DNA of 40,590 nt from Flavobacteriales bacterium (lineage in GTDB: Bacteria > Bacteroidota > Bacteroidia > JACJYZ01): the NCBI GenBank assembly GCA_020435415.1, contig JAGQZQ010000022.1:1-40590 (forward strand), in the 5' to 3' direction. The notes beneath the pieces were generated by a model. The model saw only the letters and a program-made list of their open reading frames with translations, was not told the origin of the DNA and did not search any database. Within the stretch, counting starts at the first letter, position 1, and the number at the start of each line of letters is the position of its first letter. Made by a program: the position numbers and the translations under genes. This document shows positions 1 to 24,524 of this stretch, piece after piece.

Positions 1-344
1 AATCCGTTATGAAATTTTCCCCGCTTGCCACCGAACTCGGTATATACTTGTTGTGTCTGTTCATTCCTGGCGAGGAACATATCCAGCAGTTCAGGTCTGA
101 CATGAGGCACAAGGGCAAGCATCAGAATGAATCGTTCCTCGAAGGAGAATTGATATTCCCTGACCAGCCGGTGGTATCCGGAATCTTCCGAACTCAGCGT
201 AGGAAGCGGGACTTCAAACACATCGGTGTACTTGCATTCTGCATTTGCGTTCAGCAGTGATCTGGTTTTAAGAACTTCACGGAACCACTGCAGTTCGGAT
301 TGCAGGTCGCGGGCATTGGATTTTATGGAGGTTGTTGTTACCAT
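1..344 (-). CDS. eCIS AAA+ ATPase (Pvc15-like), N-terminal fragment cut by window edge
   Basis: Only the first 114 codons are inside the window; the reading frame is open to base 1. The start ATG (342-344) overlaps the end of the tape-measure gene by 7 bases, a coupling typical of the Pvc14-Pvc15 pair. The visible part is helical and ends in a segment (FGGKRGKFHNG, after PHVRPELLDMF) that resembles the conserved N-terminal domain preceding the AAA+ module in eCIS ATPases. The Walker A and B motifs would lie outside the window. In the family this ATPase is essential for particle assembly, though it is not part of the mature particle. The assignment rests on this N-terminal resemblance and on position as last structural-assembly gene of the operon; it would be firm once the P-loop is seen. 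Confidence 0.8.
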   Translation of the reverse strand, partial: MVTTTSIKSNARDLQSELQWFREVLKTRSLLNANAECKYTDVFEVPLPTLSSEDSGYHRLVREYQFSFEERFILMLALVPHVRPELLDMFLARNEQTQQVYTEFGGKRGKFHNG

Positions 345-2120: not shown

Positions 2121-5100
2121 CTATTTTCTTTTAAACAGCGCATCCACCATATCGCTTCTATTCAAACTGGCGTCTACGCCCAGTTGCTCCGCTAACTTGA
2201 AAAGTGTTTCATCACTTAATGATGCTACCTCTTTTCTGGTCAGCGGTTGCGTTTTCAATCCTTCCTGTAGTTTTTTTGATAATGTTTCTCTTGTATCGGC
2301 CGTGGTCACTTTAAGCTGTCTGGACTCCATCAGGGCCGACAGTTCATTTCTGTTCAGGAATAAAAGATTATCCGTCAATGTTATTGTAGGTGTGGTCTCT
2401 CCCTGAATCTGGAAGTCCACGATCTGAGAAGAAGCCATGGCACCATCAAGGTCTACCGCCCTTCCCTGAAGTCTGTACGAACCGGCCTTGAGACCTTCCA
2501 TGACATACCCGAAATTCTGTTCCTTGGTGGTCACACCGTGGAGTTGTCCGTTCAACAGCACCTCCACTTTTGCCACGCCGGTATCGTCACCTGTGATGAA
2601 CACCACATCAATGGCAGAGCCAACCGGGAAGATCTGGTTTGTTTTCGGCTGTGCGATATTTACAAAGGGTGGTTCATTGCCACGAAGCAAACTGATATTC
2701 AGGAATGCCTGTGCAAACAATCCACTTGGATCGGTCACGCGTATTCCCAGTTGGAAGCCTTGTGAGTTGGGGAAGTTGGTGTTGCTGGCTACCACGATCT
2801 GTCCGGTGTTTGCAACAATGCGGAATGCATTGCCTGTATTTCCGGAAACGATACTGAAGGTGAGCGGATCTCCGTCAGGATCGCTGGCTTCCATGGTGGT
2901 CACCACTGTTCCTACCGCTATGGTCACAGGAATCTCAACACTTTGATTCCCGATGTTAGGGGCTTTGTTCTCATCAAACACCGTGATCACGACAAATGCT
3001 TCATCAAACAAGCCGAGAGGGTCTGTCACCCGAACACCCATTTCATATGGGATCGGCTCCATGGAATCCGGGTTGATGATCTGGATCTCTCCGGTTTGCG
3101 GATTGATGGCGAAGATATCCGTACGTCCTGTAAAGAATGAGAATGTCAGTGGTTCATTATCCGGATCGGATGCCTCCACAGTTCCAACGATGGTACCTTT
3201 AGGGCTATTCAGTGAGATAGAGAAATCCTGGTCAGGAATAAACGGCTCACCATTGCCTGTCGGGCGCAGGGTGATCTTTCCGCATCCGTCATTCTTATCA
3301 CCTTTCGCGGTGTACTTGAATGTATAAGGATCCTGGATGCTTTGGTTTACAAACATATGCAGTTCCACGCCACCGTTTTCAATGGATACGATTTCCTGAT
3401 TCACATCCGGATCATTGAACGTAAATCCTGGGTTATCCTTCAGGCTGGCCACCACATGGTCACCTTCTTTCACAGCAAATTCAAATGACGGGAGGCGAAC
3501 GCACATCTCACGAACAAGAACGGTGACGACCCCGGTATCTCTGAGCCCGTTATTGATGTTCTCCAAGGTATAGCTGTATTTTACAATGCCGGTGAAATCT
3601 TTGGGTGGGGTGAACAGCACACTGCGTTTGTCCTTGCTTATCTGCAATTGCGGTTGGTTATCATCAAGCGGCTTGACACCTACGATAAATACATTCCATG
3701 TCTCTTCCACTTCTTTGACGCAGAACTCTTTTTCCAGGTCATGAAGATTATGGTCGTTGATAACCAGCGGCATGGTGATGGATACATTCTCGAAAGTATA
3801 TCCGTAGTCAGGTCTTGCGTATGGCGCCACCATGATGTGTTCTTTCGCGATGGCATCATCGCAGACAGGAATGCAGCGGTGATCGTCACAGCATCGGTAA
3901 GGCAGGGAAAAGTCTGCCAGCACACGCTGGTTCATCCCCAGGAAATTGCCATAGACGATCACGAATGTTCCGCCGGATGGTGTACCGGCCATATGTTCTA
4001 TGCCGGGATGTTTGGCGATGTATTCACTGAACGTCTGACTATGTTTATTGAATTGAAGGGAGTAGTAATATTCCCTTCTTCTGAAAGCATAGTAAATTCT
4101 GTACAGGCGATTAAAGAACAGCATATCGAAGAACTGGTACACCACATGTGTAGCTTCTGCGATCACTTCCTGTGCAATATCGATACCAGTCACGTTATCC
4201 ACTTCCTGGGCACCTTCATCCACATCGTTCAGGTCAAGATGTTCGAACACCTTATCGGTCACAAAGACGATGGCATCTGCATAGCGATCTTTTAGCTCTT
4301 CGAATGATGCGGCGAAATCCGGAAGGCAGGGAGGCAATGTTTTACAGATGAATGTAACGATGCCTTTGTACACCTCTTCAATGATCTTCCTGACTTCGTC
4401 ATTGATTGGTTCTTCAAAATCCTTGTCGTTTTCCTTTGCGATCTCTTCGATCCTTTTGTAGAGATCCCAGACCGTGGGGCCGAACTTGAGCATGTTCACG
4501 ATCTGGTAGCGGCAGGAAATGTAGTCTTCGTGCAGGTCATGGAATCCGCAGTTGTAGTCTACGGGCATGTCTTCCAACGATGCAGGCACGACCGGGGCAG
4601 TCGCATTATTCACCCTTACCGCAACCACATCAAACGGGAGATTGTATTTGTGAATCTTTTCTTCCAGCAGGTCGATCACTTCGGCGCAGGATTTCCCGAG
4701 CCCACCTTCGATCCGGTAAAAACCGTAAGGGTCTCTGTTAAACTGAAGGGGCTTACTTACCTTGGTCTCTGTTGCCGGTCCGCCGGAGATATCATCATAG
4801 TTATTGGCATATGCCAGCAGTCCGTCACCAACGGCACATCTTCTTTTGATATCGTAGTCCCAAAGTGCTTCCAGGCTGCCAAACTTGCCATTGATCTTGG
4901 TTCTGAAATAGTATGGAATAGCCCGTTGGGTAAGCCAGGATTTTTTCTCATCGCTGGGTGTGACCTTTACTTTGAGCGGATCATAGCTTTCGGTCTTATT
5001 CACCCTGTCGGTATCAAATGCTTTAACCATTCGCTCCACCCGGTAAAACAGTGTTTGCGTTTCGAGCAACAACTTCCCGAAAGTCGCCTTGGCGGGGGAA

Positions 5101-6182
5101 TGCATGAATTGCTGACGGTAGGCTGACGGGATGCAGTCGGTGGTCACTTCACCAAGCATCAGGTGTTTCGGAAACTTCTTTTCATCGGGACAACATCTTG
5201 TAAGCAGGTCAAATGACACTTCTCTGAATTCACTGTAGGAAACAAAGAGGTCTTTGATAAAGTCATAGTAATACTGTATCCCCATATACTTCGGCGCGCT
5301 GCCACTGCCGTCGAAAATGGCTTTCCATGCATTGGCCATGGCGACGGGGTCAGCGAACGGATTGGCAGGAAGTGATTCCCTCAATATGGGTGCGAATGCT
5401 TCATAGGCGTCTTTCCAGGCGTTGAGTATGGCGAGAACGGGGTTCTGAGCTGCCGAAAAAAGTACGTTTCCGTAGGGTGCTGCAATCTTGGCGAACGTAT
5501 CGTAGTCTGCCACCGGTGGACTGAACAGCGGCAATTTCACACCAATATCCGGAAGGCGGTACCGGTCCGGGTATAGCATCACATCTTCATTCTCCGTACG
5601 CGGCAGTACCTTGTTTTCTATATCGGAAATAGAAATGAGCAACTTGCGCAGTGTGAATTTCCTTTCAATACCGATGTCGTCACAGCTTTTGGTGAGACAG
5701 GATTTCAGGTCTTTATCATAGCATTCGAGATAAAGAACCACCACCTTATTTTCGAAGATGGACTGATCAATTTGTACAATAGGTTCCTCACTTCCATCGG
5801 CTTCAAAATCATCCGTAAGCAGTTCCTGCATCACGATATCCTGCTGTTTGGTTGCAGGATTCTGAAACGGCGGATAGTCGATGTACGGATTCATCACATA
5901 ATTCCGGTAGGATGTGATAGGACATCCGCAGAATTGGATCAGAAAACCTTCCGAGGTGACGCCTACACCTTCTGAGATGTACAGCGTATCCACACCGAGG
6001 TCCGAATCGCTTTCGGGCACAAAACGGGTTTCCAGTCCGCACAGCACGCCGATACCGATCAGGCTGGACCGTGTGAGTCTTCCCTGCTCTTCCAGATAAG
6101 AAACCAGCTGGTTGAGCTGGGTGTTGGTCAGCACCTGGTTCTTTTCAAAAATGGGATAGGCATTATAGGTTGTAGAAGCCAT
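2121..6182 (-). CDS. giant eCIS-associated protein with cadherin-like and Ig-like repeats (Pvc13 position)
   Basis: A 1353-aa protein in the operon slot normally held by the Pvc13 tail fibre, but without any visible fibre-type (adenovirus-shaft) repeats. Residues 1-740 form a mixed helical region that starts with a segment (NQVLTNTQLNQLVSYL, then LIGIGVLCGLE) I believe recurs in Bacteroidota eCIS loci. A cysteine cluster CCDDHRCIPVC lies at 764-774. Two cadherin-like repeats follow (about 983-1070 and 1077-1166), each with an ASDPDxxPLTFS strand and a RVTDPxGLF strand, and then an Ig-like domain (about 1170-1260). The last 90 residues hold two short helical motifs resembling SAP or helix-extension-helix units (ending LAEQLGVDASLNRSDMVDAL). 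No signal peptide is visible, as expected for a particle component. It might be a surface-exposed adhesin or a shell around the baseplate; the function is inferred from position only. Confidence 0.75.
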   Translation of the reverse strand: MASTTYNAYPIFEKNQVLTNTQLNQLVSYLEEQGRLTRSSLIGIGVLCGLETRFVPESDSDLGVDTLYISEGVGVTSEGFLIQFCGCPITSYRNYVMNPYIDYPPFQNPATKQQDIVMQELLTDDFEADGSEEPIVQIDQSIFENKVVVLYLECYDKDLKSCLTKSCDDIGIERKFTLRKLLISISDIENKVLPRTENEDVMLYPDRYRLPDIGVKLPLFSPPVADYDTFAKIAAPYGNVLFSAAQNPVLAILNAWKDAYEAFAPILRESLPANPFADPVAMANAWKAIFDGSGSAPKYMGIQYYYDFIKDLFVSYSEFREVSFDLLTRCCPDEKKFPKHLMLGEVTTDCIPSAYRQQFMHSPAKATFGKLLLETQTLFYRVERMVKAFDTDRVNKTESYDPLKVKVTPSDEKKSWLTQRAIPYYFRTKINGKFGSLEALWDYDIKRRCAVGDGLLAYANNYDDISGGPATETKVSKPLQFNRDPYGFYRIEGGLGKSCAEVIDLLEEKIHKYNLPFDVVAVRVNNATAPVVPASLEDMPVDYNCGFHDLHEDYISCRYQIVNMLKFGPTVWDLYKRIEEIAKENDKDFEEPINDEVRKIIEEVYKGIVTFICKTLPPCLPDFAASFEELKDRYADAIVFVTDKVFEHLDLNDVDEGAQEVDNVTGIDIAQEVIAEATHVVYQFFDMLFFNRLYRIYYAFRRREYYYSLQFNKHSQTFSEYIAKHPGIEHMAGTPSGGTFVIVYGNFLGMNQRVLADFSLPYRCCDDHRCIPVCDDAIAKEHIMVAPYARPDYGYTFENVSITMPLVINDHNLHDLEKEFCVKEVEETWNVFIVGVKPLDDNQPQLQISKDKRSVLFTPPKDFTGIVKYSYTLENINNGLRDTGVVTVLVREMCVRLPSFEFAVKEGDHVVASLKDNPGFTFNDPDVNQEIVSIENGGVELHMFVNQSIQDPYTFKYTAKGDKNDGCGKITLRPTGNGEPFIPDQDFSISLNSPKGTIVGTVEASDPDNEPLTFSFFTGRTDIFAINPQTGEIQIINPDSMEPIPYEMGVRVTDPLGLFDEAFVVITVFDENKAPNIGNQSVEIPVTIAVGTVVTTMEASDPDGDPLTFSIVSGNTGNAFRIVANTGQIVVASNTNFPNSQGFQLGIRVTDPSGLFAQAFLNISLLRGNEPPFVNIAQPKTNQIFPVGSAIDVVFITGDDTGVAKVEVLLNGQLHGVTTKEQNFGYVMEGLKAGSYRLQGRAVDLDGAMASSQIVDFQIQGETTPTITLTDNLLFLNRNELSALMESRQLKVTTADTRETLSKKLQEGLKTQPLTRKEVASLSDETLFKLAEQLGVDASLNRSDMVDALFKRK

Positions 6183-6193
6183 GATTACTTGTT

Positions 6194-9100
6194 TTAGGCA
6201 TTTCCTAGAATAGAATTGTTCAGTATGATTGAGTTCTCCGTGGTATTGTCTTCCTCACAATCGTGCAGGTGTCCCACGGGGTATACATTTCGTAATCTTG
6301 TCAGGATATCGATGAGGTTGCTGAGGGCGATGCTCAGCTGAACATGATCTCTGTCTTCCTTCGATATTTCGAGCAGCCAGCGTTTGTACATCTCCTCGAA
6401 TTCGGACATGTGTGCGTTGCTCACCCAGCAAATATTCAGGAAGATGTGAGCGGGTGCTTCCAGCCTGATCTTCCGTTCAAAGAATTTTCTGAAATCAGCG
6501 TTCCGGAACCGTCCTTGCCAGTAAGGCATAATCACCGAAGCGATATAGGTGTAGGGGTTCTCAAGCTGACAGTATATGCAGTCGGGATCCAGGTTTACGG
6601 GCAGCAGGCGATCCTGAACGAGGCTTTCGATGGATGCCAGGATGATGTGGGTGGAGCCGCCCTGTATCTCGGAAGATTCCACTTTGTACGTTCCATCGTT
6701 CCGTTGGTCCGTTGATCCTGTCAGATGCACAACCGTTTCTGCATCCACGGGTATTTCTCCGGCCACGATCACATCGCGGTTGGCGGTAATCACCGCCTGA
6801 ACAGGAGATGACACATGATAAGACACAATGCCCTGCGGTTCGGTTGTGGTTTCCGGAAAAGCCTGAACCACCTTGATCTCCGTCACATCGTCACCAACGT
6901 CATAGGTAGCAGTATTTACCGTATAGGTATCATCATTGGCATGTGTTCCGCTGACAGCCACCAGCAGGCCGGCATAGATCTCGGCTGTCCAGTCACCTTC
7001 TACGCGGAATATTTTAGAGGATTTCACGGAAGACTTGATATCCAGTTTCCGTTCGAAAAAGATCAGACCTTTATCTGCCAGCCCGCTGGCCAGTGTGTCC
7101 TCATCCGCAGGTACAAAATACCAGCCATTTACACGTGGTCTGAGCAACAGATGCTCTACAAGGTGAAAACCTTCATTGCTATAAAACTTTGTTTTGAAGA
7201 AGGCAACGGTATCGTTCACTGCCTTTGTATCCAGTCCACCGAGCACGGTCACTTTGTTTCCGGAAATCAGGTGTACAGGGAAGGATTTGGTGAATGACAG
7301 TGTACCATCGCTGTTGGTGGAAGCGAGTTCTTCCTTCACCTCAATGACAGTATCTCCGCTGACCAGACTCACCTTACGGATATTGAACAGCCCGTTGTTA
7401 AAGCCGGAACCCATGATGAGCACATCTGCCACATCGTGAAGGATCGGTGTGTAATCACCAGACAGAATAAACGCATTGCCGGGTTTATCGGCGGTAAATG
7501 ACAGGCTATCGGTATAGGCCAACTCACCATCAGAACCTGCGGCGGGCATGGGTGCGGTCATGGTCAGTTCCACATACGGACCATCCGCGGTGGCACCGGT
7601 AAATGTATAATCTCCGTTGTTGGTGTCAGCTCCGGTAATGCTCACCTGTTTTGTGGTGAGCGCATTGAATGCATCAGCGACCGGAATATTAAAATCGAAT
7701 GCCGTACTTCTGCCGAGTTCACCACCCAGTCTACTGGTCAGCACAAACTCATAAGGTGAGGTAAAAGGAGCTTCATCAGGAAGGAAACTATACTGGTCAG
7801 GATCATCACCGTTGGCGACTACGTCCCAGATAAAATCAACAGCTCTCTCCTGGGCCAGGTTCTCCATCTCCAACAGGGTCATACCTTCTTCTCCGTCGCC
7901 GGTTTGTTCGCCGGTCATGATCACATCTCCCGGATCTGTTGAATAGGCCTCGGAATGCAACTTATAGGAGATGGTATATTCCGGGATGGTGGGAACCATA
8001 TCCACGGCGATATCCACTTCAAAATAATTGTCTACCGGCGCCGCCAAATTATTGCGGTTGGATTCGGGGTTGAAGAAAATTTCATTAGCCAGGTCTGCAT
8101 GCAGTTGGGTGATCGCTTGCCCTGCAAGTTCTTCGGAAGCGTAGTTCACTTTCTTACTTATGGCGGAAAGTACCTCATTGCAATACAGTGCAAATGAAAA
8201 GGCGCCGGGTCCTTCTTCCTTAACCACAAAATTGGTGACATACTGGCCATGGGTGATCACGTCCTCAATGGCAAGTGCTGCTTCATCGGTAGTATCAAAG
8301 AGAATGCCGTCAGGCGACTGTAAAATGTAAGGCGCACTGCCAATCTCAAAACGGAACTGATCGCCGACGGCGATGATGTCAAAGGGTGCACTGAAAGAAA
8401 GATCGGAAGCCTTTCTTTCGTCCACACCCACCATGAGTGCGCCTCTTTTTTCGAGTCCGGACTTATTGTCGATATGCCAGATATGGCAGCGGTCCATATA
8501 ATTGAAAGCGGTTCCTCTTGCTGCGCTTATCTCGGGGTAGGCATTCAGGAAAGTAAGCTTGTCCTGGATCAGATCGCGGTCGGCATCGACACCTGCCAGG
8601 CGATAGGTCATCAGGGCGTAATCGGTAAACTGCTCGGAGAAGCGGGCCATCAGGTGATTGAGGAATTTGTTGCGCCGTTCAAAGAACAGGTGCTGATCCT
8701 CGGCCAGTTCGGCCAATGTTTCGGGGTGATGGTCCGGATCGGTGTACAGGCCGTCTGATTCGGGCACGATGTCTTTCAACACCTGCGTAAAATACGTTCT
8801 CCCGATGACGTAATTTCCGTCTTCATCTTTCTCCGCATTCATGGAGAAAAGATCTTTCACGTGTGCCAGCTGCGACATATAATTGGCCAGCAGCTGATCA
8901 AAAAACATAAGAAAGCCTTTCAGTTGTTTTACCTGGGCTTTTTGTTTAACCGGGGCACTGGCGGGCAGGCCTTCATCCCCGATACCGTATACCAGCGGAA
9001 AGTCTTCCTGAATGCTGGTGTATTCTTCCAATTGCAGATAATTGCCTCGTGGCACTTTCAGGTCAAGTACCGGGTTCTCTATTTTTTGTGATTGTTCTCC

Positions 9101-10612
9101 GGACTCCAGTTCTGCGACCAGGGTATCCACCACGGTCTGATCTGCCTGATAAGGAAGTTGATCTTTATAATAGGTGATCTTTGAATCGGTGACTGACAAC
9201 CTGGGGATGTAGTTGTATTCGAAAGCCAGGTCGAGGCACCACTTCACGCTTTTGGAGGGGATGCCGTCATCATTATCCTGGGGCAGGTTGGCGATCTCGA
9301 TCTTTTTTACGGCAACGACACCTTCCACATCCATAATGATCTGGATAAGATCGGAGACATGGATCACATCGCGACGATCTGCGGCGTCCACATCTTCATC
9401 CAGCAGAAAACCATGTTCCAGCAATGGGCCTTCGTAGATCTTCTCCACCGGAATATCCATTTCCAACATTTCATCCAGGGAATAGTAAGGCACGGTGGGT
9501 GACAGAAACCTTCCGATGTGATAGTAAATCTGCGCCTGCACTTCTTCCACGTCGGCTTCGAGCTCCAGTTCAATATCCGTGCAAAGAGCGATCTCTTCGA
9601 TCTTGAGTGCATTGAATTTAAAAAAGTCCTCACACAGATTCCGATTGGCGTGGAGTTTTGCCTTAACGGCTTTCAGTATTCTGAATATCTTGAATACCTT
9701 GGCCTGATAGCGGGCAATCAAGCTATCCGGACCGTTGTAAATGTATGCGTTCAGGTTATCGGAGATCATATCCATACCCAGCACTTCCTCAGGATCCGGG
9801 GCTCCGGGCTTGAGGCCTGAGAGAACAACATACTTGTTATTGTCTACCTTATAATCGAAGGTATATCGTCTGGGTTTTCTGAAAAACTGAACATTGATAT
9901 TCTGAACGGATTTGCGGATGCTATCCGGATCATTCCAGTCTACCCCTTCTTCATCCCAGCGTGGAAACTCCACTTCCACTTTGATCACCAGGCCGTTCAA
10001 TTTATCGTCCACCGCTCCGGTCACGGTCATTTGTCCGTCGAGCTCATTTTCATTCAGATCACCATAGGCGTCGCATTTCTCAAACTCCAGCAATACGTTG
10101 TAAAGCGGTTTGATCTCCAATGGTGGTTTGCCCGGATGAAGGGGATGCGGATCATAGCTCAGGATACTTTCCACGGTATGGGCATGAACGGGAAATTCAT
10201 TTTCCGGAGAAACGCTGACCCAGGCATTTTTCACACCTACGAATGAGCAACCGTCGTCACTGCTGTCGCTTACCGAAACATCCATGATGATCTTCCGGAT
10301 ATCGCGAATGGTCAATGCTTTATTGGGAAGGATTTTTGCCGCGGTGAAGAAATTCTGTATATCCTTTTTATCCGGGTCGGAAGGATCCTGGGCAATGATA
10401 TTCCGGATGTCCTGGTTCACCCGATGTCCCAGGTCAGTGATGGCATAGCTCAACACTTCCAGAATGGTCACTCCCGGATCGTGGCTATTATAATCGGTCC
10501 AGATCTTTCCTGACAGGTTCTGCACATGCTCAACACCCAGATCACGAAGGGCTTGATACTGCATGCTCTCCAGTTCCGGTAGTTTCTTCGATATTTTGAT
10601 GGACTCTTCCAC
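6194..10612 (-). CDS. eCIS baseplate wedge protein (Pvc12-like), 1472 aa, with NDGxYxV repeats
   Basis: The N-terminus (SGKIWTDYNSHDPGVTILEV, about residues 35-54, then LSYAITDLGHRV) is the hallmark of the large baseplate proteins paired with J-like proteins in Bacteroidota eCIS. The conserved core resumes near residue 1140 (FHLVEHLLLRPR) and at 1346-1440 (YTYIASVIMPYWQGRFRN, then FFERKIRLEAPAHIFLNICW). Between these conserved blocks lie at least four degenerate repeats centred near residues 997, 1071, 1224 and 1304, each with an N(N/D)(G/D)xY/F core followed by beta-rich sequence. In PVC and AFP, Pvc12/Afp12 forms the wedge with Pvc11; that role is transferred from the family. The gene begins 51 bases after the J-like gene and ends 11 bases before the 1353-aa gene. 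At 1472 aa it appears longer than typical, mainly because of the repeats. Confidence 0.88.
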   Translation of the reverse strand: MEESIKISKKLPELESMQYQALRDLGVEHVQNLSGKIWTDYNSHDPGVTILEVLSYAITDLGHRVNQDIRNIIAQDPSDPDKKDIQNFFTAAKILPNKALTIRDIRKIIMDVSVSDSSDDGCSFVGVKNAWVSVSPENEFPVHAHTVESILSYDPHPLHPGKPPLEIKPLYNVLLEFEKCDAYGDLNENELDGQMTVTGAVDDKLNGLVIKVEVEFPRWDEEGVDWNDPDSIRKSVQNINVQFFRKPRRYTFDYKVDNNKYVVLSGLKPGAPDPEEVLGMDMISDNLNAYIYNGPDSLIARYQAKVFKIFRILKAVKAKLHANRNLCEDFFKFNALKIEEIALCTDIELELEADVEEVQAQIYYHIGRFLSPTVPYYSLDEMLEMDIPVEKIYEGPLLEHGFLLDEDVDAADRRDVIHVSDLIQIIMDVEGVVAVKKIEIANLPQDNDDGIPSKSVKWCLDLAFEYNYIPRLSVTDSKITYYKDQLPYQADQTVVDTLVAELESGEQSQKIENPVLDLKVPRGNYLQLEEYTSIQEDFPLVYGIGDEGLPASAPVKQKAQVKQLKGFLMFFDQLLANYMSQLAHVKDLFSMNAEKDEDGNYVIGRTYFTQVLKDIVPESDGLYTDPDHHPETLAELAEDQHLFFERRNKFLNHLMARFSEQFTDYALMTYRLAGVDADRDLIQDKLTFLNAYPEISAARGTAFNYMDRCHIWHIDNKSGLEKRGALMVGVDERKASDLSFSAPFDIIAVGDQFRFEIGSAPYILQSPDGILFDTTDEAALAIEDVITHGQYVTNFVVKEEGPGAFSFALYCNEVLSAISKKVNYASEELAGQAITQLHADLANEIFFNPESNRNNLAAPVDNYFEVDIAVDMVPTIPEYTISYKLHSEAYSTDPGDVIMTGEQTGDGEEGMTLLEMENLAQERAVDFIWDVVANGDDPDQYSFLPDEAPFTSPYEFVLTSRLGGELGRSTAFDFNIPVADAFNALTTKQVSITGADTNNGDYTFTGATADGPYVELTMTAPMPAAGSDGELAYTDSLSFTADKPGNAFILSGDYTPILHDVADVLIMGSGFNNGLFNIRKVSLVSGDTVIEVKEELASTNSDGTLSFTKSFPVHLISGNKVTVLGGLDTKAVNDTVAFFKTKFYSNEGFHLVEHLLLRPRVNGWYFVPADEDTLASGLADKGLIFFERKLDIKSSVKSSKIFRVEGDWTAEIYAGLLVAVSGTHANDDTYTVNTATYDVGDDVTEIKVVQAFPETTTEPQGIVSYHVSSPVQAVITANRDVIVAGEIPVDAETVVHLTGSTDQRNDGTYKVESSEIQGGSTHIILASIESLVQDRLLPVNLDPDCIYCQLENPYTYIASVIMPYWQGRFRNADFRKFFERKIRLEAPAHIFLNICWVSNAHMSEFEEMYKRWLLEISKEDRDHVQLSIALSNLIDILTRLRNVYPVGHLHDCEEDNTTENSIILNNSILGNA

Positions 10613-10663: not shown

Positions 10664-13600
10664 TTAATCACAACCACATCCATCAGCAGCTAGCTCTTTC
10701 ACACCGAACACTTCGTTTTCATCGCATCCGCAGATCGCCTCTTCCATCACGTGGATGAGATGTTCCGGTGCAGATCCGAGTACGGATCCGGTGGTGCTGG
10801 CTCGCGCCTCGTTAATGTCTATGGTTGACGGTGCCACACCCTCCGATGGCACTGTATGATACATTTTAAAGCAGGTCACATAATCTACATAGTCCCGTTC
10901 TTCCACAAAATTCAGGATCATGGATTTGTGTATTCTTCCGCCGAAGACGATATCCGAGCTATCCTCATAGGCCCATGGGGACAGGAAAGCTTTGATCTCA
11001 TCATTCAGTAATTCCTGGTAATAACCATTGTCGATACCGTCATAAAACTTGACATTCAACTCCACCTGAATTTCTTCATACAGTGGGTTTCTGACATGAA
11101 GCTCTACGCATTCCGCTTTAATATCGGTAAGGAATGTTTCGATCTCCGCCAGGGTAATCAGACTGGTTTTAGGTTTTAGCGGGTCTACCGCATTCTTATT
11201 GATCACGCTGGAAATCACAATGAGGGACACATGTCCAGGCGCAACCTCGGAGTAGTCTGTTGTTGTTCCATTAAAAATGGTATGGTTGATGCACTTCACC
11301 TTATACACGGAAGGGAACTCTTCCAGCACGAGTCTTTCATAGTCCCAGATGGTGATAGCGCGCTGCTTATGCCTCAGCCGTTCACTGACCCGCGTATAAA
11401 AAGCACTGCTGCTTTCTTTCAGCTTTCCACCGAATGAGCTGAAAGGCTGCTCTACCTTATCAATGGCAGAGTCGCTTTCCCGGAGCTTCTTGATCGTCTC
11501 CGCAGGCAAAGCCTTTCCCAGTCGGTTGGGGTCATTGTTGATATCCTCAGCGGTGGCTGTAACCGCTTGTGCGCGGATATCCACCATATCGGAAATGGCG
11601 GGTGTATCCTTGTCGACGGTAGCCCTGATCCAGAGCAAACCATCGGAGAGTAATTCGTGTGAGGTATTCGCTTCTTTGGGCAGAGCAAAGGAAATGATAC
11701 CGGAAGTCAGCAAACCGTTGGTGGAATCTGACAATATCTTCCGGTCGTTGAAGGTCTTCCAGGTATTGCCGGCCAGATAACTCCAATTTACCTTCTGTTG
11801 CAGATAGTCAGGGTTTGCGCTGCCCTCTGCAACCTGGAAAAGAAGTGACAGATTACTTCCTCCGGTTAAATTTTCAATTCCGATATAGAGGCTGCCTTCG
11901 CTGGTGATTACCGGCATCAGGTCATTGGTGGCTTCCCTGGCATCCGTTTCTGCCGCACCGAATGGGTGCACATGAAAGAACTGTTCCACCCGGTTTTCCC
12001 ATGCCTTCTCCGATTGCTTTACAATATTCAGATCAACAGAGGAGGAATAGTCCAGGGACAGTTCCTTGATCGTTGGTGTGTAGGGTTCATTCGGAAGATT
12101 TGGAGGGACCGGCGGATTGGCGGTTACACCTGCCAGCACCTGTTGGGTATAAGAAGTAGGATAATCCTTATGACCGAAGTTTTCCCCTTTCAGGGTCATC
12201 CTCAGAAATCCTTTTTGTGTTGTCGTATCAAGCTGGGTGAACGGAATGATCTCCGGATCACGTTTTACATCGCCAAGCGAATCGGTTGCTCCGGTGTTCG
12301 CTACAGATAAAAATAGGTTGTTGACCGGATTGATGATTTCCTCATCGGTGGCATTATCGAATAGCTGGAGATAACTTCCGTCTTTCATCACCGGCGTCCA
12401 CTCTCTTTTATCAAGCAAAGAAACCTCTGTAAGAAAGGTGGTATTCTGACGTTCGCCGGTCTGCACGGTATAGTTGGCATAATACGCGCCGAAGCTTTGT
12501 TCTTCAGGAAGCTCATGCCATTGTATGTTGACGGTCAGTGTTTCCAGATTCTTTTGAAAGATCTCCTGGTTGCCGATGTAGAAGGAGGCATCAAGTTGCG
12601 GCCGGTTACCGAATGGCTGGAATGGCTTGGCCGGATCAAGCCGGGCAGCATCATTCTGAATAATATTACTCTTCACATCCGACACATTCACATGGATGTT
12701 GGCTGCGGTCAGGTCGAGGTCCCTGAGATATTTATACACATACGGGCTTGCCGGATAATCACGATTCAATGTGACCTTCATCACCGGCCACGATGTTTTA
12801 TACGGTTCAAGAAGTACCTCCTGATTGTAAGCAACCACGGCGGGCTGACTTTCCTCTATGGTACGGATGATGGTGATCGTGTTGGCAACGGGGTCTACAA
12901 TGGTGGCATTGGACAGGTTCCTGAAAGTGTAGGCCATGTCGTTCAGCTTATCAATACCGAAGCCTTTCACATCCAGCAGCTGATCAAGGGAGGTGTAAGA
13001 GCCGATGATATTCCGTTTGGCGACGATGCGTTCTGCCACCAGCGCACCTATATCATAATCATCGATCTGGTCTCCATAACCGGTATTCGGGTCATCGCTG
13101 ATCTTGTGATCGAGGTCATCTTTCGTGGCAGAGTTTGCAAATGCCAGTATTCTTTCGACCACCTGCGGATGATACTTTCCATCGGTGACATCATACGCAT
13201 CCTCACCTTCGGGAGATATCCATTCTTCTTCTCCACTGAACACCACATCAAATGATTTATCAGCATGCGGAAACACGGATCCGATCTTTGTCTCCGGAGA
13301 AAATGTGAGGGTAACGGTTACCGTTCTTTCTCCTTCGGCAAGGAAAAGTATGGGAGATGCAAATGCAAAACCGATCTCGGGTTGATCCCTGTCGGTATTA
13401 CCGAATATCTCCCAATGCATGTCTTCACTCTCGATTTCAGCACCTTCTCCATCTGATGAGTTTGCGATGGGAGAGGCATACAGGCGTTGCGTGTTTTCTA
13501 CATCTGCAAACAGTGCCTTGATGGCGCTCACCTCACCTTTGTTCACCACGAGTTCATCATCCGTAGCGAAGAACAGAGGTTGTCCGGTGTCATCTTTCCC

Positions 13601-14116
13601 GGCCTTCAGCTCTGTGTTTTCCTTTACAGCATGGGATTTGGCAATGTGCTTTGCCAGGGTGAAGATGAGGAATACCTGATCTGAAACGGCTGGCTTTTCT
13701 TCCAGGCGAAGTACTTCTTTATAATAGAAATCAAGATGGCGTTTTGTAATGGTGTTAAGGTCATCCTGTGCCTTCCTGAATAACTTCAGAAACGCAAGGA
13801 ATAACGCAAAATGAGGCTGGGTGAATCCGCCCTTCTTTTCAACATAATCCAGAAAATTCTCTGTGTCGCTGTAATCTTCATCCAGCAGGATATCGATGTC
13901 ATTGTCGGCGTTGAAGAACGTTTTCCAATCACCATCTGCCAGGTTATCAATATCCACATAGGCGATCTCACCCGCATACTGCTGCACAAAGGTGATGAGG
14001 TCCTTCATGCTGCGTTCGTCCACCGCCACATATTCAGGCAACAATGCTTCCGCCAGCCGTTCATTCCGGTTGGTTCCGTCGCGCTGTATAAGGGCTTTAT
14101 TTTCGCAGGTTTCCAT
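10664..14116 (-). CDS. eCIS baseplate J-like protein (Pvc11-like)
   Basis: A 1150-aa protein recognisable by its C-terminal third, where FYTRVSERLRHKQRAITIWD and YERLVLEEFPSVYKVKC match the baseplate-J-like (gp6/Pvc11) family; the very C-terminus carries the usual late domain with alternating strands and helices (VELHVRNPLYEEIQVELNV). About residues 365-405 (YTSLDQLLDVKGFGIDKLN) resemble a helix-hairpin-helix unit, which is unexpected in a baseplate component. The last 30 residues contain CGCDENE and end DGCGCD, a small cysteine cluster. The protein should form the wedge heteromer of the baseplate with the Pvc12-like protein encoded directly downstream. It begins 9 bases after the gp25-like gene. 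The family call is secure; the HhH-like segment and cysteine tail are what I read from the sequence and have no assigned role. Confidence 0.9.
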   Translation of the reverse strand: METCENKALIQRDGTNRNERLAEALLPEYVAVDERSMKDLITFVQQYAGEIAYVDIDNLADGDWKTFFNADNDIDILLDEDYSDTENFLDYVEKKGGFTQPHFALFLAFLKLFRKAQDDLNTITKRHLDFYYKEVLRLEEKPAVSDQVFLIFTLAKHIAKSHAVKENTELKAGKDDTGQPLFFATDDELVVNKGEVSAIKALFADVENTQRLYASPIANSSDGEGAEIESEDMHWEIFGNTDRDQPEIGFAFASPILFLAEGERTVTVTLTFSPETKIGSVFPHADKSFDVVFSGEEEWISPEGEDAYDVTDGKYHPQVVERILAFANSATKDDLDHKISDDPNTGYGDQIDDYDIGALVAERIVAKRNIIGSYTSLDQLLDVKGFGIDKLNDMAYTFRNLSNATIVDPVANTITIIRTIEESQPAVVAYNQEVLLEPYKTSWPVMKVTLNRDYPASPYVYKYLRDLDLTAANIHVNVSDVKSNIIQNDAARLDPAKPFQPFGNRPQLDASFYIGNQEIFQKNLETLTVNIQWHELPEEQSFGAYYANYTVQTGERQNTTFLTEVSLLDKREWTPVMKDGSYLQLFDNATDEEIINPVNNLFLSVANTGATDSLGDVKRDPEIIPFTQLDTTTQKGFLRMTLKGENFGHKDYPTSYTQQVLAGVTANPPVPPNLPNEPYTPTIKELSLDYSSSVDLNIVKQSEKAWENRVEQFFHVHPFGAAETDAREATNDLMPVITSEGSLYIGIENLTGGSNLSLLFQVAEGSANPDYLQQKVNWSYLAGNTWKTFNDRKILSDSTNGLLTSGIISFALPKEANTSHELLSDGLLWIRATVDKDTPAISDMVDIRAQAVTATAEDINNDPNRLGKALPAETIKKLRESDSAIDKVEQPFSSFGGKLKESSSAFYTRVSERLRHKQRAITIWDYERLVLEEFPSVYKVKCINHTIFNGTTTDYSEVAPGHVSLIVISSVINKNAVDPLKPKTSLITLAEIETFLTDIKAECVELHVRNPLYEEIQVELNVKFYDGIDNGYYQELLNDEIKAFLSPWAYEDSSDIVFGGRIHKSMILNFVEERDYVDYVTCFKMYHTVPSEGVAPSTIDINEARASTTGSVLGSAPEHLIHVMEEAICGCDENEVFGVKELAADGCGCD

Positions 14117-14125: not shown

Positions 14126-14563
14126 CTAAATATCTGTTCCTTCGTTAAAGTAAAACGGGTAAACGAGGTTGGTCCTCGTATTGGTCGCGATGATGGTATA
14201 ATCCAACTGTATGAGGATGTATCCTTCTTCAGGATCCTGTTGATAGGACACATCTTTCACACTTACCCTGGGTTCATGGAAGAGGATGGCGCGTTTAATA
14301 TCTTCAGTCAGTCTGGCGGCAGAAGATACCCGAAGCGGCTCGAATATCTTTTCGCGCAGACTGGCACCATAGTCCGGTCTCATCACGCGTTCTCCGCGGA
14401 TGGTAGACAACAGTATTTCCAGACTTTCACGGATGTCCTGTTCGTCTTCCGACAGTTCCACCATGCTGCCTTCTTTATTAAAAGTCACAGGCCAGGCCCA
14501 TCCCCTTCCAAGGAAACTGTTCTGTTGTTGACTTTCAATATCTATGTCTTCTGTTTCAGGCAT
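14126..14563 (-). CDS. GPW/gp25-family baseplate protein (Pvc9-like)
   Basis: A 145-aa protein with the complete gp25-like fold signature: FLGRGWAWPVTF near the N-terminus, IRESLEILLSTIRGERVMRPDYG in the middle, and the FHEPRVSV block carrying the EPR motif typical of gp25/TssE-like proteins. Members sit in the baseplate wedge and contact the first sheath ring, nucleating sheath assembly. The length is normal for the family. It lies 11 bases after the PAAR gene and 9 bases before the J-like gene, so it is translated from the same operon mRNA. No unusual features are visible apart from a 15-20 residue acidic N-terminal extension before the conserved region. Confidence 0.93.
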   Translation of the reverse strand: MPETEDIDIESQQQNSFLGRGWAWPVTFNKEGSMVELSEDEQDIRESLEILLSTIRGERVMRPDYGASLREKIFEPLRVSSAARLTEDIKRAILFHEPRVSVKDVSYQQDPEEGYILIQLDYTIIATNTRTNLVYPFYFNEGTDI

Positions 14564-14574: not shown

Positions 14575-14853
14575 TTATCCGATCATCACCGTTGGTTCAC
14601 CAACAGCGGCGCCAGCACCACATATACAAACATCACCTACCCGGATGGCCGGCTTGCCCCCTATCAGCACCGTTGTACTTCCCATCGGAAAGGGACTTGC
14701 CGTAGGCTGATGTGCATTGGGTGGCAGGGAGCATACATGATTATCTCCTGCCACACATGCCGGCATGTTCCCGATAAGCACGGTGGCTTCTCCGGGTCCT
14801 ACGATGGTTCCCCCATGGGTCGTTGTGTCGGTTACTCTTGCTGCGGGTGGCAT
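14575..14853 (-). CDS. PAAR-domain spike tip protein (Pvc10-like)
   Basis: A 92-aa single-domain protein with PAAR repeats: MPPAARVTDTTTHGGTI at the start, then VLIGNMPACVAGDNHVC, and TTVLIGGKPAIRVGDVCIC in the second half, ending GEPTVMIG. Conserved His14, Cys and His residues could form the tip metal site known in PAAR proteins. It would cap the beta-helical spike encoded upstream and form the piercing tip; small effectors can be attached through PAAR proteins in related systems, but this one has no C-terminal extension. It is separated from the spike gene by a 94-base gap filled with AT-rich repeats, the largest gap inside the operon. Confidence 0.93.
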   Translation of the reverse strand: MPPAARVTDTTTHGGTIVGPGEATVLIGNMPACVAGDNHVCSLPPNAHQPTASPFPMGSTTVLIGGKPAIRVGDVCICGAGAAVGEPTVMIG

Positions 14854-14947: not shown

Positions 14948-16702
14948 CTAATTGATCTGAACCAGAGAGCCTTTGACAACGGTTTGGGCGCTGGAGGTAA
15001 GTTCCGCACCTGCACCGCCGTCGGCTTTATAGCTCGCACTGGCTTTTTCAGTGATGTTTGTTCCTTCTATATTGATATCTCCTGATGCTTTCAGGTTGAT
15101 GTCTTTTGCACTTTCGATTGTGATCCCGTCGGAGCTCATCGTAATTTTATTTCCATTCTCATCTTCCAGGTTGATCCCTCCTTCATCATCGCTGATGACC
15201 ATGGTATTTCCGTTCGGGGTCTCAAGCGTGATACTGAGCTTATCATCGTTGAAGGTGAGTTTAAGTTCTCCCCTTGTAACAAAACCCTTCTCATTATTCT
15301 CTTCTTCCGCATCGATCGGCGCGGGTTTGGCGCTGCTGTGCACCATCCCCAGAATGATCGGGTCACGGGGATCATCATTCAGAAATCCAACGATCACCTC
15401 ATCTTCCACTTCGGGTCTGAAGACCATGCCGCGATTCTCTCCTGCATCGGGGCTCACCATTCTTGCCCAGACCCCTTCATTCTCAGGGTCGATGACAGGC
15501 AGTCTGACCTTGATCCGGAAATCGCCGTCCGGGTCTTCATGGATATTGGTCACCACGCCTACCTGCAACCCGTGTATCGGTGGCAGCATACCACCTGCAG
15601 GCTTATCCACGATGTCATCATAGCGGGTGATGAACCATTGCTCATCCAATCCGAATTCCAGGTGCGTATACCAGGCCATCCCGGTGGTGATCTGATGAAC
15701 AACCGAGGATACGAATGCAGGTCCGTTAAATCGGTTTCCGAGTCCCTGGAACGAGATGATGTGGCCTGGTTTGATGTCACTGAAGCCAACGATCTTCACA
15801 CGCCCTTTTACTTTTGACAAGCGGCTTCTGAGCAGGCGTGCATCCGACCAGGCTTTGAGTTCGGTGTCCTCTACCTTTCCGCTGTGTTGCTGTGTAAACG
15901 TTTCCAGGCCGATCACGTCAGACAGGTCCGAGGTCGTAAAGTCACCCTGTTCGGAAAGACCGGGATCCTCTCCTTCCTCTTCGATCATCTCCTGTGCCGT
16001 GAAGTCCCATGATTTACTGACGGAGGCGGCCAGCTGATCCCGTGCGTCCATGTCGGCCTCAAATTCCATGATGTTGTGTCCGTAAGCAAGGTTCAGCAAG
16101 GGATCCTGTGAAAGGTCCGGCGCTTTTACACCCAATGTGCCGTCATCCGCAAACACCAGCAGACCGTTTACTTCGGCTCTGCTTACAACGAAGTCCCAGT
16201 CTGTGCAATGGTATTGCACCATTTCTTTATGTGTAACGGAAGTGGCTTCGACGTCTGTTTGCAGTCCGTATTCACCGGCGATCTCTTCGATCACATCACT
16301 GTCCGCAACCTCTTCAAAATATTTGCTTTTCCTGCCTATGGTCATTTTAACGGCGGCATCGCGCAGCTCTATGATGAGGACCGGGTTTTTATTTTCCAGG
16401 GATTTGATACCATGTTTAATGATGATCCCTTTAAAAACGGTGTCTTCAATATTGTGATAACCACCTTTGATCTCCACTTCTTTACCGGGGACGAACATGT
16501 CTCCGCTGCTGACCTCAAAATCTTCAAGCGCCACATCTCCGTCGCTCAGGATCAGTCTCGCCTTGGGGATTTTGTTGACGGCCTTGGATACCATGATCGA
16601 GATCAGACCGAACAGTCCACCGATATCCTCCCCGTCCACCAGCACCTTGAAGGTGGGCAGGTCGGTTGCAGCCTGGGTTGGTATGGTGAGGGTTTCGGCC
16701 AT
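14948..16702 (-). CDS. eCIS spike protein, gp27/gp5 (VgrG-like) fusion (Pvc8-like)
   Basis: A 584-aa protein with the usual three-part spike build. Residues 1 to about 350 correspond to the gp27-like hub region (strand-rich, with WDFVVSRAEVNGLLVFADDG and a GHNIMEFE segment). An OB-fold of the gp5/phage baseplate V type follows at about 377-460 (VGVVTNIHEDPDGDFRIKV, then VWARMVSPDAGENRGMVF and EDEVIVGFLNDDPRDPIILG). The C-terminus is a run of short beta-helix strands (GDINIEGTNITEKAS) ending SAQTVVKGSLVQIN, with no effector domain fused. It would form the trimeric spike at the particle's distal end and receive the PAAR tip. It starts 2 bases after the LysM gene ends. Confidence 0.93.
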   Translation of the reverse strand: MAETLTIPTQAATDLPTFKVLVDGEDIGGLFGLISIMVSKAVNKIPKARLILSDGDVALEDFEVSSGDMFVPGKEVEIKGGYHNIEDTVFKGIIIKHGIKSLENKNPVLIIELRDAAVKMTIGRKSKYFEEVADSDVIEEIAGEYGLQTDVEATSVTHKEMVQYHCTDWDFVVSRAEVNGLLVFADDGTLGVKAPDLSQDPLLNLAYGHNIMEFEADMDARDQLAASVSKSWDFTAQEMIEEEGEDPGLSEQGDFTTSDLSDVIGLETFTQQHSGKVEDTELKAWSDARLLRSRLSKVKGRVKIVGFSDIKPGHIISFQGLGNRFNGPAFVSSVVHQITTGMAWYTHLEFGLDEQWFITRYDDIVDKPAGGMLPPIHGLQVGVVTNIHEDPDGDFRIKVRLPVIDPENEGVWARMVSPDAGENRGMVFRPEVEDEVIVGFLNDDPRDPIILGMVHSSAKPAPIDAEEENNEKGFVTRGELKLTFNDDKLSITLETPNGNTMVISDDEGGINLEDENGNKITMSSDGITIESAKDINLKASGDINIEGTNITEKASASYKADGGAGAELTSSAQTVVKGSLVQIN

Positions 16703-16704: not shown

Positions 16705-17430
16705 TTATTTTTTCTTGTCAATTGGTGGCAGAATCAGCTTCTGTCCCACTTTCAGTTTCCGGAAGTTGATCAGTTTATTCACGCGGGCGATCTCCAGGTA
16801 GAAAGATGGATCGCCGTATATTTTGTTGGCAATTCGTGGCAGTGTATCTCCGGCTTTCACCAGGCGGTAATGGGTAAGGTCAGGAGATGACTTCCTGTCT
16901 TGTGCCGCCTGTTCCTGCAAGGATGTATGCTTCCGGAAGCTGCATGCCACGGTAGACCGGATAGGGTTACCATCCAGGTTGAACAGCTTATGTGTTACGG
17001 TCGCCGATTCGAGCAGTCCTCGGAATTCGAAGTTCCCCCAACGGAGTTTGAGAAAATTCGGTTGGTGCGTATCGCCGGAACGCTGGTATGTGACTTCGAG
17101 AAAATTCTTGATCGCATCATCGGTATGCTTGTCTTTCAGTACCTGGTCGGCGATATTGGAAGTGCCGGACAAACTGGCACCGGTGGCATCAAAAAGGAAC
17201 TCAAACGAGACATTCTCCGGTTCGGTATGGGTGAATACGAGTGTACCGGTATTTCCCTGGGTGGTGGGACGCTCGTAGTTATTCTTGTATTCCTGGCTGT
17301 ACGTATTGGGATTGTACATCACCTGAAACGTGGCAATCTCATCCCCATCGTTGTATTCCTCATCGGGATAAGCGTCGATGGTCATTTTGGCCAGGCCATC
17401 CAGCTCGCTGAATATGTCAGTGATTGCCAT
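16705..17430 (-). CDS. LysM-domain eCIS baseplate hub protein (Pvc7-like)
   Basis: A 241-aa protein. The N-terminal 180 residues are the family-specific domain (starting with a segment that includes FQVMYNPNTYSQEYKN, and then FLFDATGAS), and the C-terminal 50 residues form a LysM unit (HYRLVKAGDTLPRIANKIYG, ending KVGQKLILPP). In PVC/AFP the protein with this architecture connects the spike hub to the first tube ring; the LysM is thought to act in assembly rather than wall digestion. The start codon overlaps the stop codon of the small upstream gene by one base (TGATG), which suggests translational coupling. The call rests on domain order and position between tube and spike. Confidence 0.9.
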   Translation of the reverse strand: MAITDIFSELDGLAKMTIDAYPDEEYNDGDEIATFQVMYNPNTYSQEYKNNYERPTTQGNTGTLVFTHTEPENVSFEFLFDATGASLSGTSNIADQVLKDKHTDDAIKNFLEVTYQRSGDTHQPNFLKLRWGNFEFRGLLESATVTHKLFNLDGNPIRSTVACSFRKHTSLQEQAAQDRKSSPDLTHYRLVKAGDTLPRIANKIYGDPSFYLEIARVNKLINFRKLKVGQKLILPPIDKKK

Positions 17431-17624: not shown

Positions 17625-18104
17625 TTAGAACGGTAACAGATCCGTAGGATCGATGCGGCGGAAGTACTGGTAAGAGAACTCCACGGATTCGATCAGGATT
17701 TGTGCATCCTGCGCATTGAGATTGGCGATATCCCATTTCACCGGGTAGGCCTGAATAAAGTTCCAGGCTTGAAGCGGAATGTGATCGCCGTTCAACAATA
17801 CCACGGTGATATCAGCCGGTTCAAAGGTGAAATTCTCGGTGCTTTCCTTGAACCATTGCATGAGTTGAGAGCCGATGAGCAGGCCGCGTTTCATGACAAG
17901 ATTCTGGTAGCCCGCCGGCTGGGGAAGGCGATGTTTAAATCGGTTCTCGCCTCCCTCGTGATACTCTTCCGTAGCAATATCCACGTTGATACCGGACACT
18001 TCCTGAAAGCCAAGATCCGGAATACCCAGATACTTGGGATTGGTGAGCAGTCCTTCGAACCGCACCAGAAAATGAAACCCTACAGGTGGATTGAACAATG
18101 GCAT
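17625..18104 (-). CDS. eCIS tail tube protein, second copy (Pvc5-like, gp19 family)
   Basis: A 159-aa phage tube/gp19-family protein. Diagnostic segments are PPVGFHFLVRF at the N-terminus, LGFQEVSGINVDI, a long strand/loop EYHEGGENRFKHRLP, and a final ESVEFSYQYFRR strand. It differs strongly from the other tube protein encoded upstream (144 aa), with an extra loop GLLTNPKYLGIPD near residues 18-30, as expected if it forms the specialised tube-initiating ring near the baseplate rather than the bulk tube. Which of the two is the bulk tube is inferred from length and position only. Confidence 0.9.
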   Translation of the reverse strand: MPLFNPPVGFHFLVRFEGLLTNPKYLGIPDLGFQEVSGINVDIATEEYHEGGENRFKHRLPQPAGYQNLVMKRGLLIGSQLMQWFKESTENFTFEPADITVVLLNGDHIPLQAWNFIQAYPVKWDIANLNAQDAQILIESVEFSYQYFRRIDPTDLLPF

Positions 18105-18125
18105 GATGCAATCGTTTCAGGCAGA

Positions 18126-20018: not shown

Positions 20019-20056
20019 AGTATCTTGTTTTTATTGGATGAGTAAGGTGAGTTATA

Positions 20057-21493: not shown

Positions 21494-21526
21494 GTGTTGA
21501 ATGGGTTAGCTTGTTTTACAATGGGT

Positions 21527-24522: not shown

Positions 24523-24524
24523 GA

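What the first reader, a model, noticed from the sequence alone, without database searches (positions are those of the whole stretch)
2121..6182. 1353-aa cadherin/Ig-repeat protein in the tail-fibre slot
Instead of a fibre with triple-helix or knob repeats, the operon has a large protein with a 740-residue helical head, a cysteine cluster (764-774), two cadherin-like repeats, an Ig-like domain and two C-terminal SAP-like helical motifs. It could be a new type of receptor-binding or baseplate-shell component.
Basis: partly seen in the sequence, partly recalled or inferred. Interest (0 to 1): 0.7.

Follow-up and report, generated by a model that had tools for sequence, protein, structure and literature searches.

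The report
Cadherin-bearing tail fibre of eCIS
The gene makes what is probably the target-grasping leg of a phage-tail-like injection machine, a known type of tail fibre that here carries a cadherin-like adhesive segment, and the neighbouring baseplate protein ends in a short peptide that probably plugs into it.

Summary
The ORF is real: 1353 codons at 2121-6182, on the minus strand, in an eCIS operon that the contig end cuts after the tape measure. It is not a new type of component. Its first ~775 residues are the head of the Alg19/Cis19 (eBAP4) fibre family: a head profile matches AlgoCIS fibre Alg19 (9WT0, E=2e-129) and tCIS crown Cis19 (7B5H, E=6e-110), and its AlphaFold model matches 7B5H (Foldseek E=2e-31, Z=28). 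The cadherin repeats, Ig domain and cysteine cluster are confirmed; the 'SAP-like' end is best read as a tandem HeH module.

All 58 head-positive genomes of 395 also had the CIS tape-measure gene, and the gene normally sits between the Alg12-like wedge gene and the tape measure. Tails vary widely behind the conserved head.

Extra result: the wedge protein next door ends in a conserved peptide, matching the Alg12 end that docks Alg19. It is present in 87 of 91 fibre loci and 0 of 15 fibre-less ones; held-out loci gave 15 of 16 and 0 of 17.

Most likely a baseplate-anchored, trimeric, receptor-binding fibre. New member of a known kind. Ligand, trimer and target are inferred, not shown.

The parts
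2121..6182 (-). eCIS tail fibre of the Alg19/Cis19 (eBAP4) family, 1353 aa
5613..6182 (-). residues 1-190, 'shoulder': presumed baseplate-docking alpha/beta domain
   Evidence: matches Cis19 6-184 and Alg19 7-192; model; the name 'shoulder' and its docking role are from PMC13314943
3948..5612 (-). residues ~191-745: rest of the conserved head, with the HPG.EH.AGV..GGTF motif near 725-740
3861..3893 (-). cysteine cluster C764, C765, C770, C774 at the head/tail joint
   Evidence: a [Y/F/I/V]xCC motif recurs in many but not all relatives; two of the cysteines are conserved columns in A7
   Evidence: block pLDDT 71-83 for ~835-894, lower before it; Z 9.4 to a phage Milano collar chain and about 8 to cadherin and Rib domains; Big_9 at this place in five relatives
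2967..3230 (-). cadherin-like repeat 1 (residues ~985-1072; limits approximate)
   Evidence: second PF00028 stretch (one search gives its count, not its limits); phmmer to cadherin-23 and CDHR2 over 987-1161
2691..2966 (-). cadherin-like repeat 2 (residues ~1073-1164)
   Evidence: PF00028 1081-1164 and Big_9 1072-1163
2469..2669 (-). Ig-like domain Big_7 (residues 1172-1238)
   Evidence: E=2.6e-7
2133..2375 (-). C-terminal tandem HeH/SAP-like helical module (residues ~1270-1350)
6194..10612 (-). baseplate wedge protein, Alg12/Cis12-like (1472 aa)
   Evidence: phmmer to Cis12/All3315 E=4.2e-145 and Alg12 E=2.3e-111
6197..6283 (-). proposed fibre-docking peptide: C-terminus of the wedge protein, YPVGHLHDC...IILNNSILG
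   Evidence: the C-terminal loop of Alg12 docks Alg19 in PMC13314943
338..2095 (-). CIS tape-measure protein (PF19268, E=1.8e-108)
3..344 (-). start of the next gene, runs off the contig; position suggests the Afp15-type ATPase (recalled, not tested)
10664..14116 (-). baseplate protein, Afp11/Alg11-like (Baseplate_J, E=4.7e-6)
14126..14563 (-). gp25-like sheath initiator
14575..14853 (-). PAAR-like spike tip (by sequence look and position; no family search)
14948..16702 (-). VgrG-like spike (Phage_base_V, Phage_GPD)
16705..17430 (-). CIS tube/LysM protein (Afp7-like)
17625..18560 (-). two tube proteins (17625-18104, 18126-18560)
18600..22993 (-). three sheath proteins
   Evidence: PF04984 in all three, over the curated cut-off only in the first; the first also PF17482
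24525..25127 (-). Pvc16-like cap protein

Best explanation
It is the tail fibre of an eCIS of the AlgoCIS/tCIS kind. Shown here by sequence, fold prediction and gene context: the N-terminal head is homologous to that of Alg19 and Cis19, the gene lies beside the wedge gene, and the wedge protein carries a conserved C-terminal peptide that comes and goes with the fibre. Inferred from Alg19: three copies form one leg, the central helices of the shoulder trimer grip the C-terminal loop of the wedge protein, one leg sits at each of six baseplate vertices and bridges neighbouring wedges, and it both steadies the loaded machine and makes first contact with the target. Inferred for this protein: the chain behind the cysteine cluster (Ig-type domain, two cadherin repeats that look calcium-binding, Ig domain) is a flexible, exchangeable adhesive segment that holds the receptor, ended by a tandem HeH module of unknown role; binding tilts the legs outwards and a second signal opens the cage and fires the sheath.
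For: Sequence: phmmer to 7B5H All3314/Cis19 E=5e-52 and 9WT0 E=1.2e-44 in several colinear stretches; profile 2e-129 (9WT0) and 5.5e-110 (7B5H); 9WT0 is the AlgoCIS fibre bound to the wedge. Fold: Foldseek 7B5H E=2e-31, next TssK 6N38 at 5e-3; VIA Z=28.0 over 605 residues, rmsd 8.7. Context: all 58 head-positive genomes are among the 75 of 395 with PF19268 (hypergeometric 1.4e-54, which treats related genomes as independent); wedge gene directly upstream in 56 of 57 and 34 of 37 loci, tape measure directly downstream in 54 of 57 and 33 of 37, same strand in all 57 and 37. Docking peptide: 87 of 91 fibre loci and 0 of 15 fibre-less; held-out 15 of 16 and 0 of 17; the same peptide ends Cis12 and Alg12. 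Tails: PKD in 10 of 60, SprB 5, Big_9 5, CarboxypepD_reg 3, VWA 2, PF00028 only in the window. No strongly hydrophobic 19-residue stretch (highest mean 1.21). Literature: particles without Alg19 are rarely seen bound to cells and fire more easily at low pH (PMC13314943, Results read).
Against: No experiment on this protein; receptor, target and trimer are untested. In tCIS the homologous Cis19 forms a crown, and target binding there is only proposed. The cadherin part of the tail model has low confidence (mean pLDDT of the tail 49.9). Four of 91 fibre loci miss the strict peptide pattern (L089, L091, L092, L112; L092 and L112 show near variants), and held-out L174 lacks it too. Two loci (L074, L075) carry two fibres in tandem with the tape measure elsewhere. 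In 17 of 75 tape-measure genomes no such fibre was found, so an eCIS can do without it. Tail binding alone did not fire AlgoCIS.
Confidence: 0.88

Rival explanations
1. It is a structural crown rather than a receptor-binding fibre: it rings the baseplate, keeps the iris closed, and the cadherin/Ig chain only packs or holds the particle inside its own cell, as could be so in tCIS.
For: By single-sequence search the head is somewhat closer to Cis19 than to Alg19, and the wedge protein is closer to Cis12 (4.2e-145) than to Alg12 (2.3e-111). AlgoCIS without Alg19 fires more easily, so a stabilising role exists.
Against: The profile search ranks Alg19 above Cis19. Tails vary greatly behind a conserved head, as expected of a target-binding part. 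Cis19 itself has flexible fibre-like protrusions proposed to bind targets.
Confidence: 0.09
2. It is a secreted or surface adhesin or enzyme unrelated to the particle that happens to lie in the operon.
For: Cadherin and Ig repeats are common in cell-surface adhesins (recalled).
Against: No homologue was seen away from eCIS genes; the one locus without an eCIS neighbour (L119) is a 4.2-kb contig. No strongly hydrophobic segment. The head's fold is that of a baseplate protein.
Confidence: 0.01
3. It is a new type of baseplate-shell component.
For: Unusual domain mix; only 1 of 60 scanned tails (its own) had PF00028, though L094, scanned later, has five such stretches.
Against: Clear homology to Alg19 and Cis19; the class eBAP4 with Ig, PKD and cadherin-like modules is in print.
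Confidence: 0.02

Closest known systems
Alg19, tail fibre of AlgoCIS (Algoriphagus machipongonensis; PDB 9WT0)
   Same: Head profile match spans positions 1-726 of 756; wedge protein with the same C-terminal peptide; Ig-rich C-terminal part.
   Different: Alg19 is 1443 aa and deposited as a PKD protein; here cadherin repeats, one Big_7 and a tandem HeH end. The HeH end was not found in 9WT0 by sequence. Wedge protein 1472 aa here against 933 listed for Alg12.
Cis19/All3314, crown of the Anabaena tCIS (PDB 7B5H)
   Same: Head fold (Foldseek E=2e-31, Z=28) and sequence; long wedge protein like Cis12.
   Different: tCIS is anchored in thylakoids. The window's genome is in the class of Algoriphagus: G194 ('same class') has the contig length and wedge C-terminus of Algoriphagus boritolerans L102. 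Tail domains differ from those of the window's protein by length and Pfam content; Cis19's own tail was not scanned.
eBAP4 class of eCIS fibres (PMC12923769)
   Same: Defined by the first ~200 aa of the tCIS crown gene; bulky shaft, then chains of Ig, PKD, VWA, carboxypeptidase-regulatory and cadherin-like modules.
   Different: The whole words HeH, LEM and 'SAP domain' do not occur in that paper's main text.
TssK of T6SS and phage receptor-binding shoulders
   Same: The Alg19 shoulder is reported to resemble them; TssK is the next, weak Foldseek match (E=5e-3).
   Different: No match at E <= 0.1 in the profile search of PDB sequences.

Membership tests
Alg19/Cis19 fibre family (eBAP4) | N-terminal ~200-aa anchor homologous to the tCIS crown protein | tested here: met
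   residues 4-186 match All3314 6-184, i-E 1.2e-22; profile 5.5e-110
Alg19/Cis19 fibre family (eBAP4) | bulky alpha+beta shaft after the anchor with the Cis19 fold | tested here: met
   AlphaFold model against 7B5H: E=2e-31, Z=28.0 over 605 residues
Alg19/Cis19 fibre family (eBAP4) | gene next to an Afp12 homologue in an eCIS locus | tested here: met
   window: wedge gene 6194-10612, 11 bases away; other loci:
Alg19/Cis19 fibre family (eBAP4) | C-terminal chain of Ig-fold attachment modules | tested here: met
   cadherin x2 and Big_7 by Pfam; beta domain 782-894 by model
Alg19/Cis19 fibre family (eBAP4) | homotrimer docked on the C-terminal loop of the wedge protein | tested here: inconclusive
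   trimer not modelled; the peptide is present in the window's wedge protein and co-occurs with the fibre
Alg19/Cis19 fibre family (eBAP4) | binds target cells | not testable with these tools
   shown for Alg19 only (PMC13314943)
eCIS (AlgoCIS/tCIS-like) | sheath, tube, LysM protein, spike, gp25, Afp11/12 homologues, tape measure, cap | tested here: met
eCIS (AlgoCIS/tCIS-like) | AAA ATPase (Afp15) | not tested
   contig ends after 114 codons of the next gene
HeH/LEM/SAP-like domains | family profile match in the window's own C-terminus | tested here: inconclusive
   best match to such a family for the window's own is LEM at E=0.57; unrelated families score 0.023-0.11; other members match PF12949 at best 1.9e-5; homology to those members is above shuffles

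The most novel reading that the evidence does not exclude
In this subclade the fibre is built inside out: the docking head and the very C-terminal tandem HeH module are kept, while the stretch between them is exchanged (cadherins in the window and L094, CarboxypepD_reg domains in L093, L036 and Algoriphagus, repeats of a CYS..LECWG unit in L111). The conserved tip would then do a common job (a second receptor, binding the particle's own cage, or trimer closure) and the variable middle would set specificity, unlike fibres whose tips vary most.
Probability: 0.2. Interest if true: 0.5.

Novelty: new member of a known kind. Interest (0 to 1): 0.33.

Why it matters
It places an unusual-looking gene in a family whose mechanism is being worked out by cryo-EM, and shows how much the adhesive part changes behind a conserved docking head. 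The wedge-protein peptide gives a sequence test for whether an eCIS baseplate has a socket for this kind of leg, even when the fibre gene is missing from a contig, and a short, removable target for testing docking. How eCIS particles choose their targets is still open; the cadherin segment is a concrete candidate to test.

Tried and rejected
'New type of component' was rejected after the PDB and literature matches. Secreted enzyme or adhesin outside eCIS was rejected by context and fold. NCBIfam gave only the tandem-95 repeat model far below its cut-off (30.1 against 90 bits) and PHROGs one chance-level match. The viral-contig scan found no match. A search of the window's own assembly found one copy; the other hit is a 93-residue stretch over the Big_7 part on another contig (E=7.8e-4). 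The C-terminal profile against solved structures gave only weak matches (FluMu gp35 E=0.062, T4 endonuclease VII E=0.25). The cadherin region of the tail model is too uncertain to interpret; the tail fold search covers only 782-894. Absence of families from the VIA lists is not read as evidence. The peptide pattern was written after looking at the first sets, so searches are not a blind test; one search is held out, but its loci share ancestry, so its Fisher p (1.5e-8) overstates the case. Dropped before that count: 9 loci without a wedge ORF and 4 repeats, of 46 fetched; not fetched at all were tape-measure fragments and sub-cut-off hits. 'Fibre-less' there means within the stretch of at most 20 kb: some of those genomes (such as G687, G612, G634) gave more than one tape-measure locus. 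The profile was built from the sequences it then found; independent checks are the single-sequence phmmer, the leave-out profile and one hit, L149, among 18 new fibre ORFs.
Full report
WHAT IS THERE. The ORF at 2121-6182 is real, 1353 codons, minus strand. The operon on that strand reads, in gene order: Pvc16-like cap, an F5/8-C protein, three sheaths, two tubes, CIS tube/LysM, spike, PAAR-like tip, gp25, Afp11-like, Afp12-like wedge protein, this protein, CIS tape measure, and the start of another gene cut by the contig end.

WHAT IT IS. phmmer against the PDB found All3314 (Cis19, the crown of the Anabaena tCIS, 7B5H, E=5e-52) and a 1443-aa 'PKD domain-containing protein' of 9WT0 (E=1.2e-44), in colinear stretches covering about 4-187, 289-551 and 713-772. 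PMC13314943 states that 9WT0 is the AlgoCIS tail fibre on the baseplate wedge and that Alg19 has 1443 residues. A profile of 32 heads gave E=2e-129 (9WT0) and 5.5e-110 (7B5H) and nothing else at E <= 0.1. The AlphaFold model of residues 1-777 (pLDDT 78.3, pTM 0.60) matches 7B5H at E=2e-31, with TssK next at 5e-3, and at Z=28.0 over 605 residues (rmsd 8.7) against 9.3 for the next entry.

CONTEXT ACROSS GENOMES. The head was found in 58 of 395 genomes of the phylum draw, the window's own included. The CIS tape-measure family PF19268 was found in 75 of the 395, and all 58 are among the 75 (the two lists compared by eye; hypergeometric 1.4e-54, taking related genomes as independent). Of 57 neighbourhoods (59 homologues), the wedge gene is directly upstream in 56 and the tape measure directly downstream in 54; the exceptions are two contig ends (L042, L058) and two tandem pairs (L074, L075). 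In 37 further loci from named records the figures are 34 and 33. There, every missing tape measure (L108, L119, L120, L122) and two of three missing wedge genes (L117, L119) lie at contig ends; in L120 a 2058-aa ORF takes the wedge label one gene further up. L119 is too short to show any neighbour. At least one genome is in both sets (L037 and L102). Named carriers include many Algoriphagus, Fodinibius, Aquimarina, Chitinophaga, Nostoc, Geobacter and a gemmatimonadete.

THE TAIL VARIES. Of 60 tails scanned (59 homologues and the window, E <= 0.01), PKD occurs in 10, SprB in 5, Big_9 in 5, CarboxypepD_reg in 3, VWA in 2, and PF00028 cadherin only in the window. Among ten relatives scanned singly, L094 has five cadherin stretches, L093, L036, L098, L102 and L105 have CarboxypepD_reg domains, and L110 has no match. 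L093 is the nearest relative (48% identical head) yet is 1166 aa long and shows no cadherin. What the window shares with L093, L094, L036, L111 and the Algoriphagus set besides the head is the cysteine joint, the beta domain after it (Big_9 in L036, L098, L102, L104, L111) and the C-terminal module. That module is supported by single-sequence phmmer to L093 (i-E 8e-8) and L036 (i-E 7.5e-4), by a leave-out profile (23.0 bits against at most 15.4 in 1000 shuffles), by HeH/LEM matches in 3 and T4 endonuclease VII dimerisation matches in 5 of 15 aligned C-termini, and by two helix-loop-helix units in the model with block pLDDT 73-86. It is a subclade feature: 18 of 96 fibre ORFs, all of them in the training set, and 1 of 18 new ones.

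THE SOCKET. PMC13314943 reports that the C-terminal loop of Alg12 docks the central helices of the Alg19 shoulder. I looked at the C-termini of the neighbouring wedge proteins. A pattern written after seeing them ([YFH][PERA]xxxLxxC in the last 170 residues) is present in 87 of 91 fibre loci (83 of 87 after merging identical ends), in 0 of 15 tape-measure loci without the fibre, and in 1 of 530 other eCIS ORFs over 100 aa. Within genus g60 it is 14 of 14 against 0 of 4, and within genus g6, 9 of 9 against 0 of 2 (read). With the pattern unchanged, 46 new tape-measure loci were fetched; 9 had no wedge ORF and 4 repeated earlier ones; of the other 33, fibre loci had it in 15 of 16 and fibre-less loci in 0 of 17. 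The window's peptide aligns with the very ends of Cis12 (E=2.4e-9) and Alg12 (E=0.0017) and with no other chain at E <= 10; Afp12 and Pvc12, whose bodies do match the wedge protein, were not found to share it. The exceptions L089 and L174 pair short fibres (771 and 704 aa) with wedge proteins that lack the peptide. I found no paper that describes this pairing as a sequence marker, in one search (contractile injection, tail fiber, C-terminal loop, Afp12: 0 papers) and in sections 8 and 11 of PMC12923769, which do say that most such fibres anchor to Afp12 homologues; the docking itself is published.

HOW IT MOST LIKELY WORKS. Shown: homology, predicted fold of the head, steady context, co-occurrence with the peptide, variation of the tail. 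Inferred from Alg19: a trimeric leg at each baseplate vertex, bridging wedges, steadying the loaded state, and first contact with the target, after which the legs tilt, the cage opens and the sheath contracts. Inferred for this protein: the cadherin-Ig stretch, with DPDN/DPDG motifs (that these look calcium-binding is recalled), is the adhesive part.

NOVELTY. The family is in print under three names (Alg19, Cis19, eBAP4), with Ig, PKD, VWA and cadherin-like tails noted. The particular cadherin cassette and HeH end are a variation within it; a search for contractile injection, tail fiber and 'HeH domain' found 0 papers. I call it a new member of a known kind. Papers were seen as follows: PMC13314943 abstract, whole Results section and passages; PMC8894136 and PMC8894135 passages; PMC12923769 passages and sections 8 and 11; all others only as search listings.

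Noticed in passing
23011-24657 (-): Protein between the cap gene and the sheaths carries an F5/8-C domain (E=3.7e-16; PDB glucanase/chitosanase chains E~1e-10). A carbohydrate-binding type of fold at the cap end of an eCIS is unexpected. The listed TTG start overlaps the cap gene, so the true start is probably near 24522.
   Followed up: partly
6194-10612 (-): The wedge protein is 1472 aa, longer than Alg12 (933) and nearer Cis12 (1335); in tCIS an extra part of Cis12 reaches the thylakoid membrane. What it does here is unknown.
   Followed up: partly
L074 and L075: Two fibre genes of different length in tandem behind the wedge gene, with the genome's tape measure about 17.5 kb away on the other strand (G308, G012).
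   Followed up: no
L089 and L174: Short fibres (771 and 704 aa) paired with wedge proteins that lack the docking peptide: possibly another way of attachment.
   Followed up: no
32044-35154 (+): ABC transporter with an N-terminal TerB domain (PF05099, E=4.4e-7), beyond the eCIS on the other strand.
   Followed up: no
25389-26864 (-): 491-aa protein with weak tetratricopeptide matches directly upstream of the cap gene; may belong to the operon.
   Followed up: no
L130-L144: Tape-measure loci without this fibre mostly have no gene between wedge protein and tape measure (gap under 260 bases in 14 of 15; L135 has a 484-codon frame there).
   Followed up: partly
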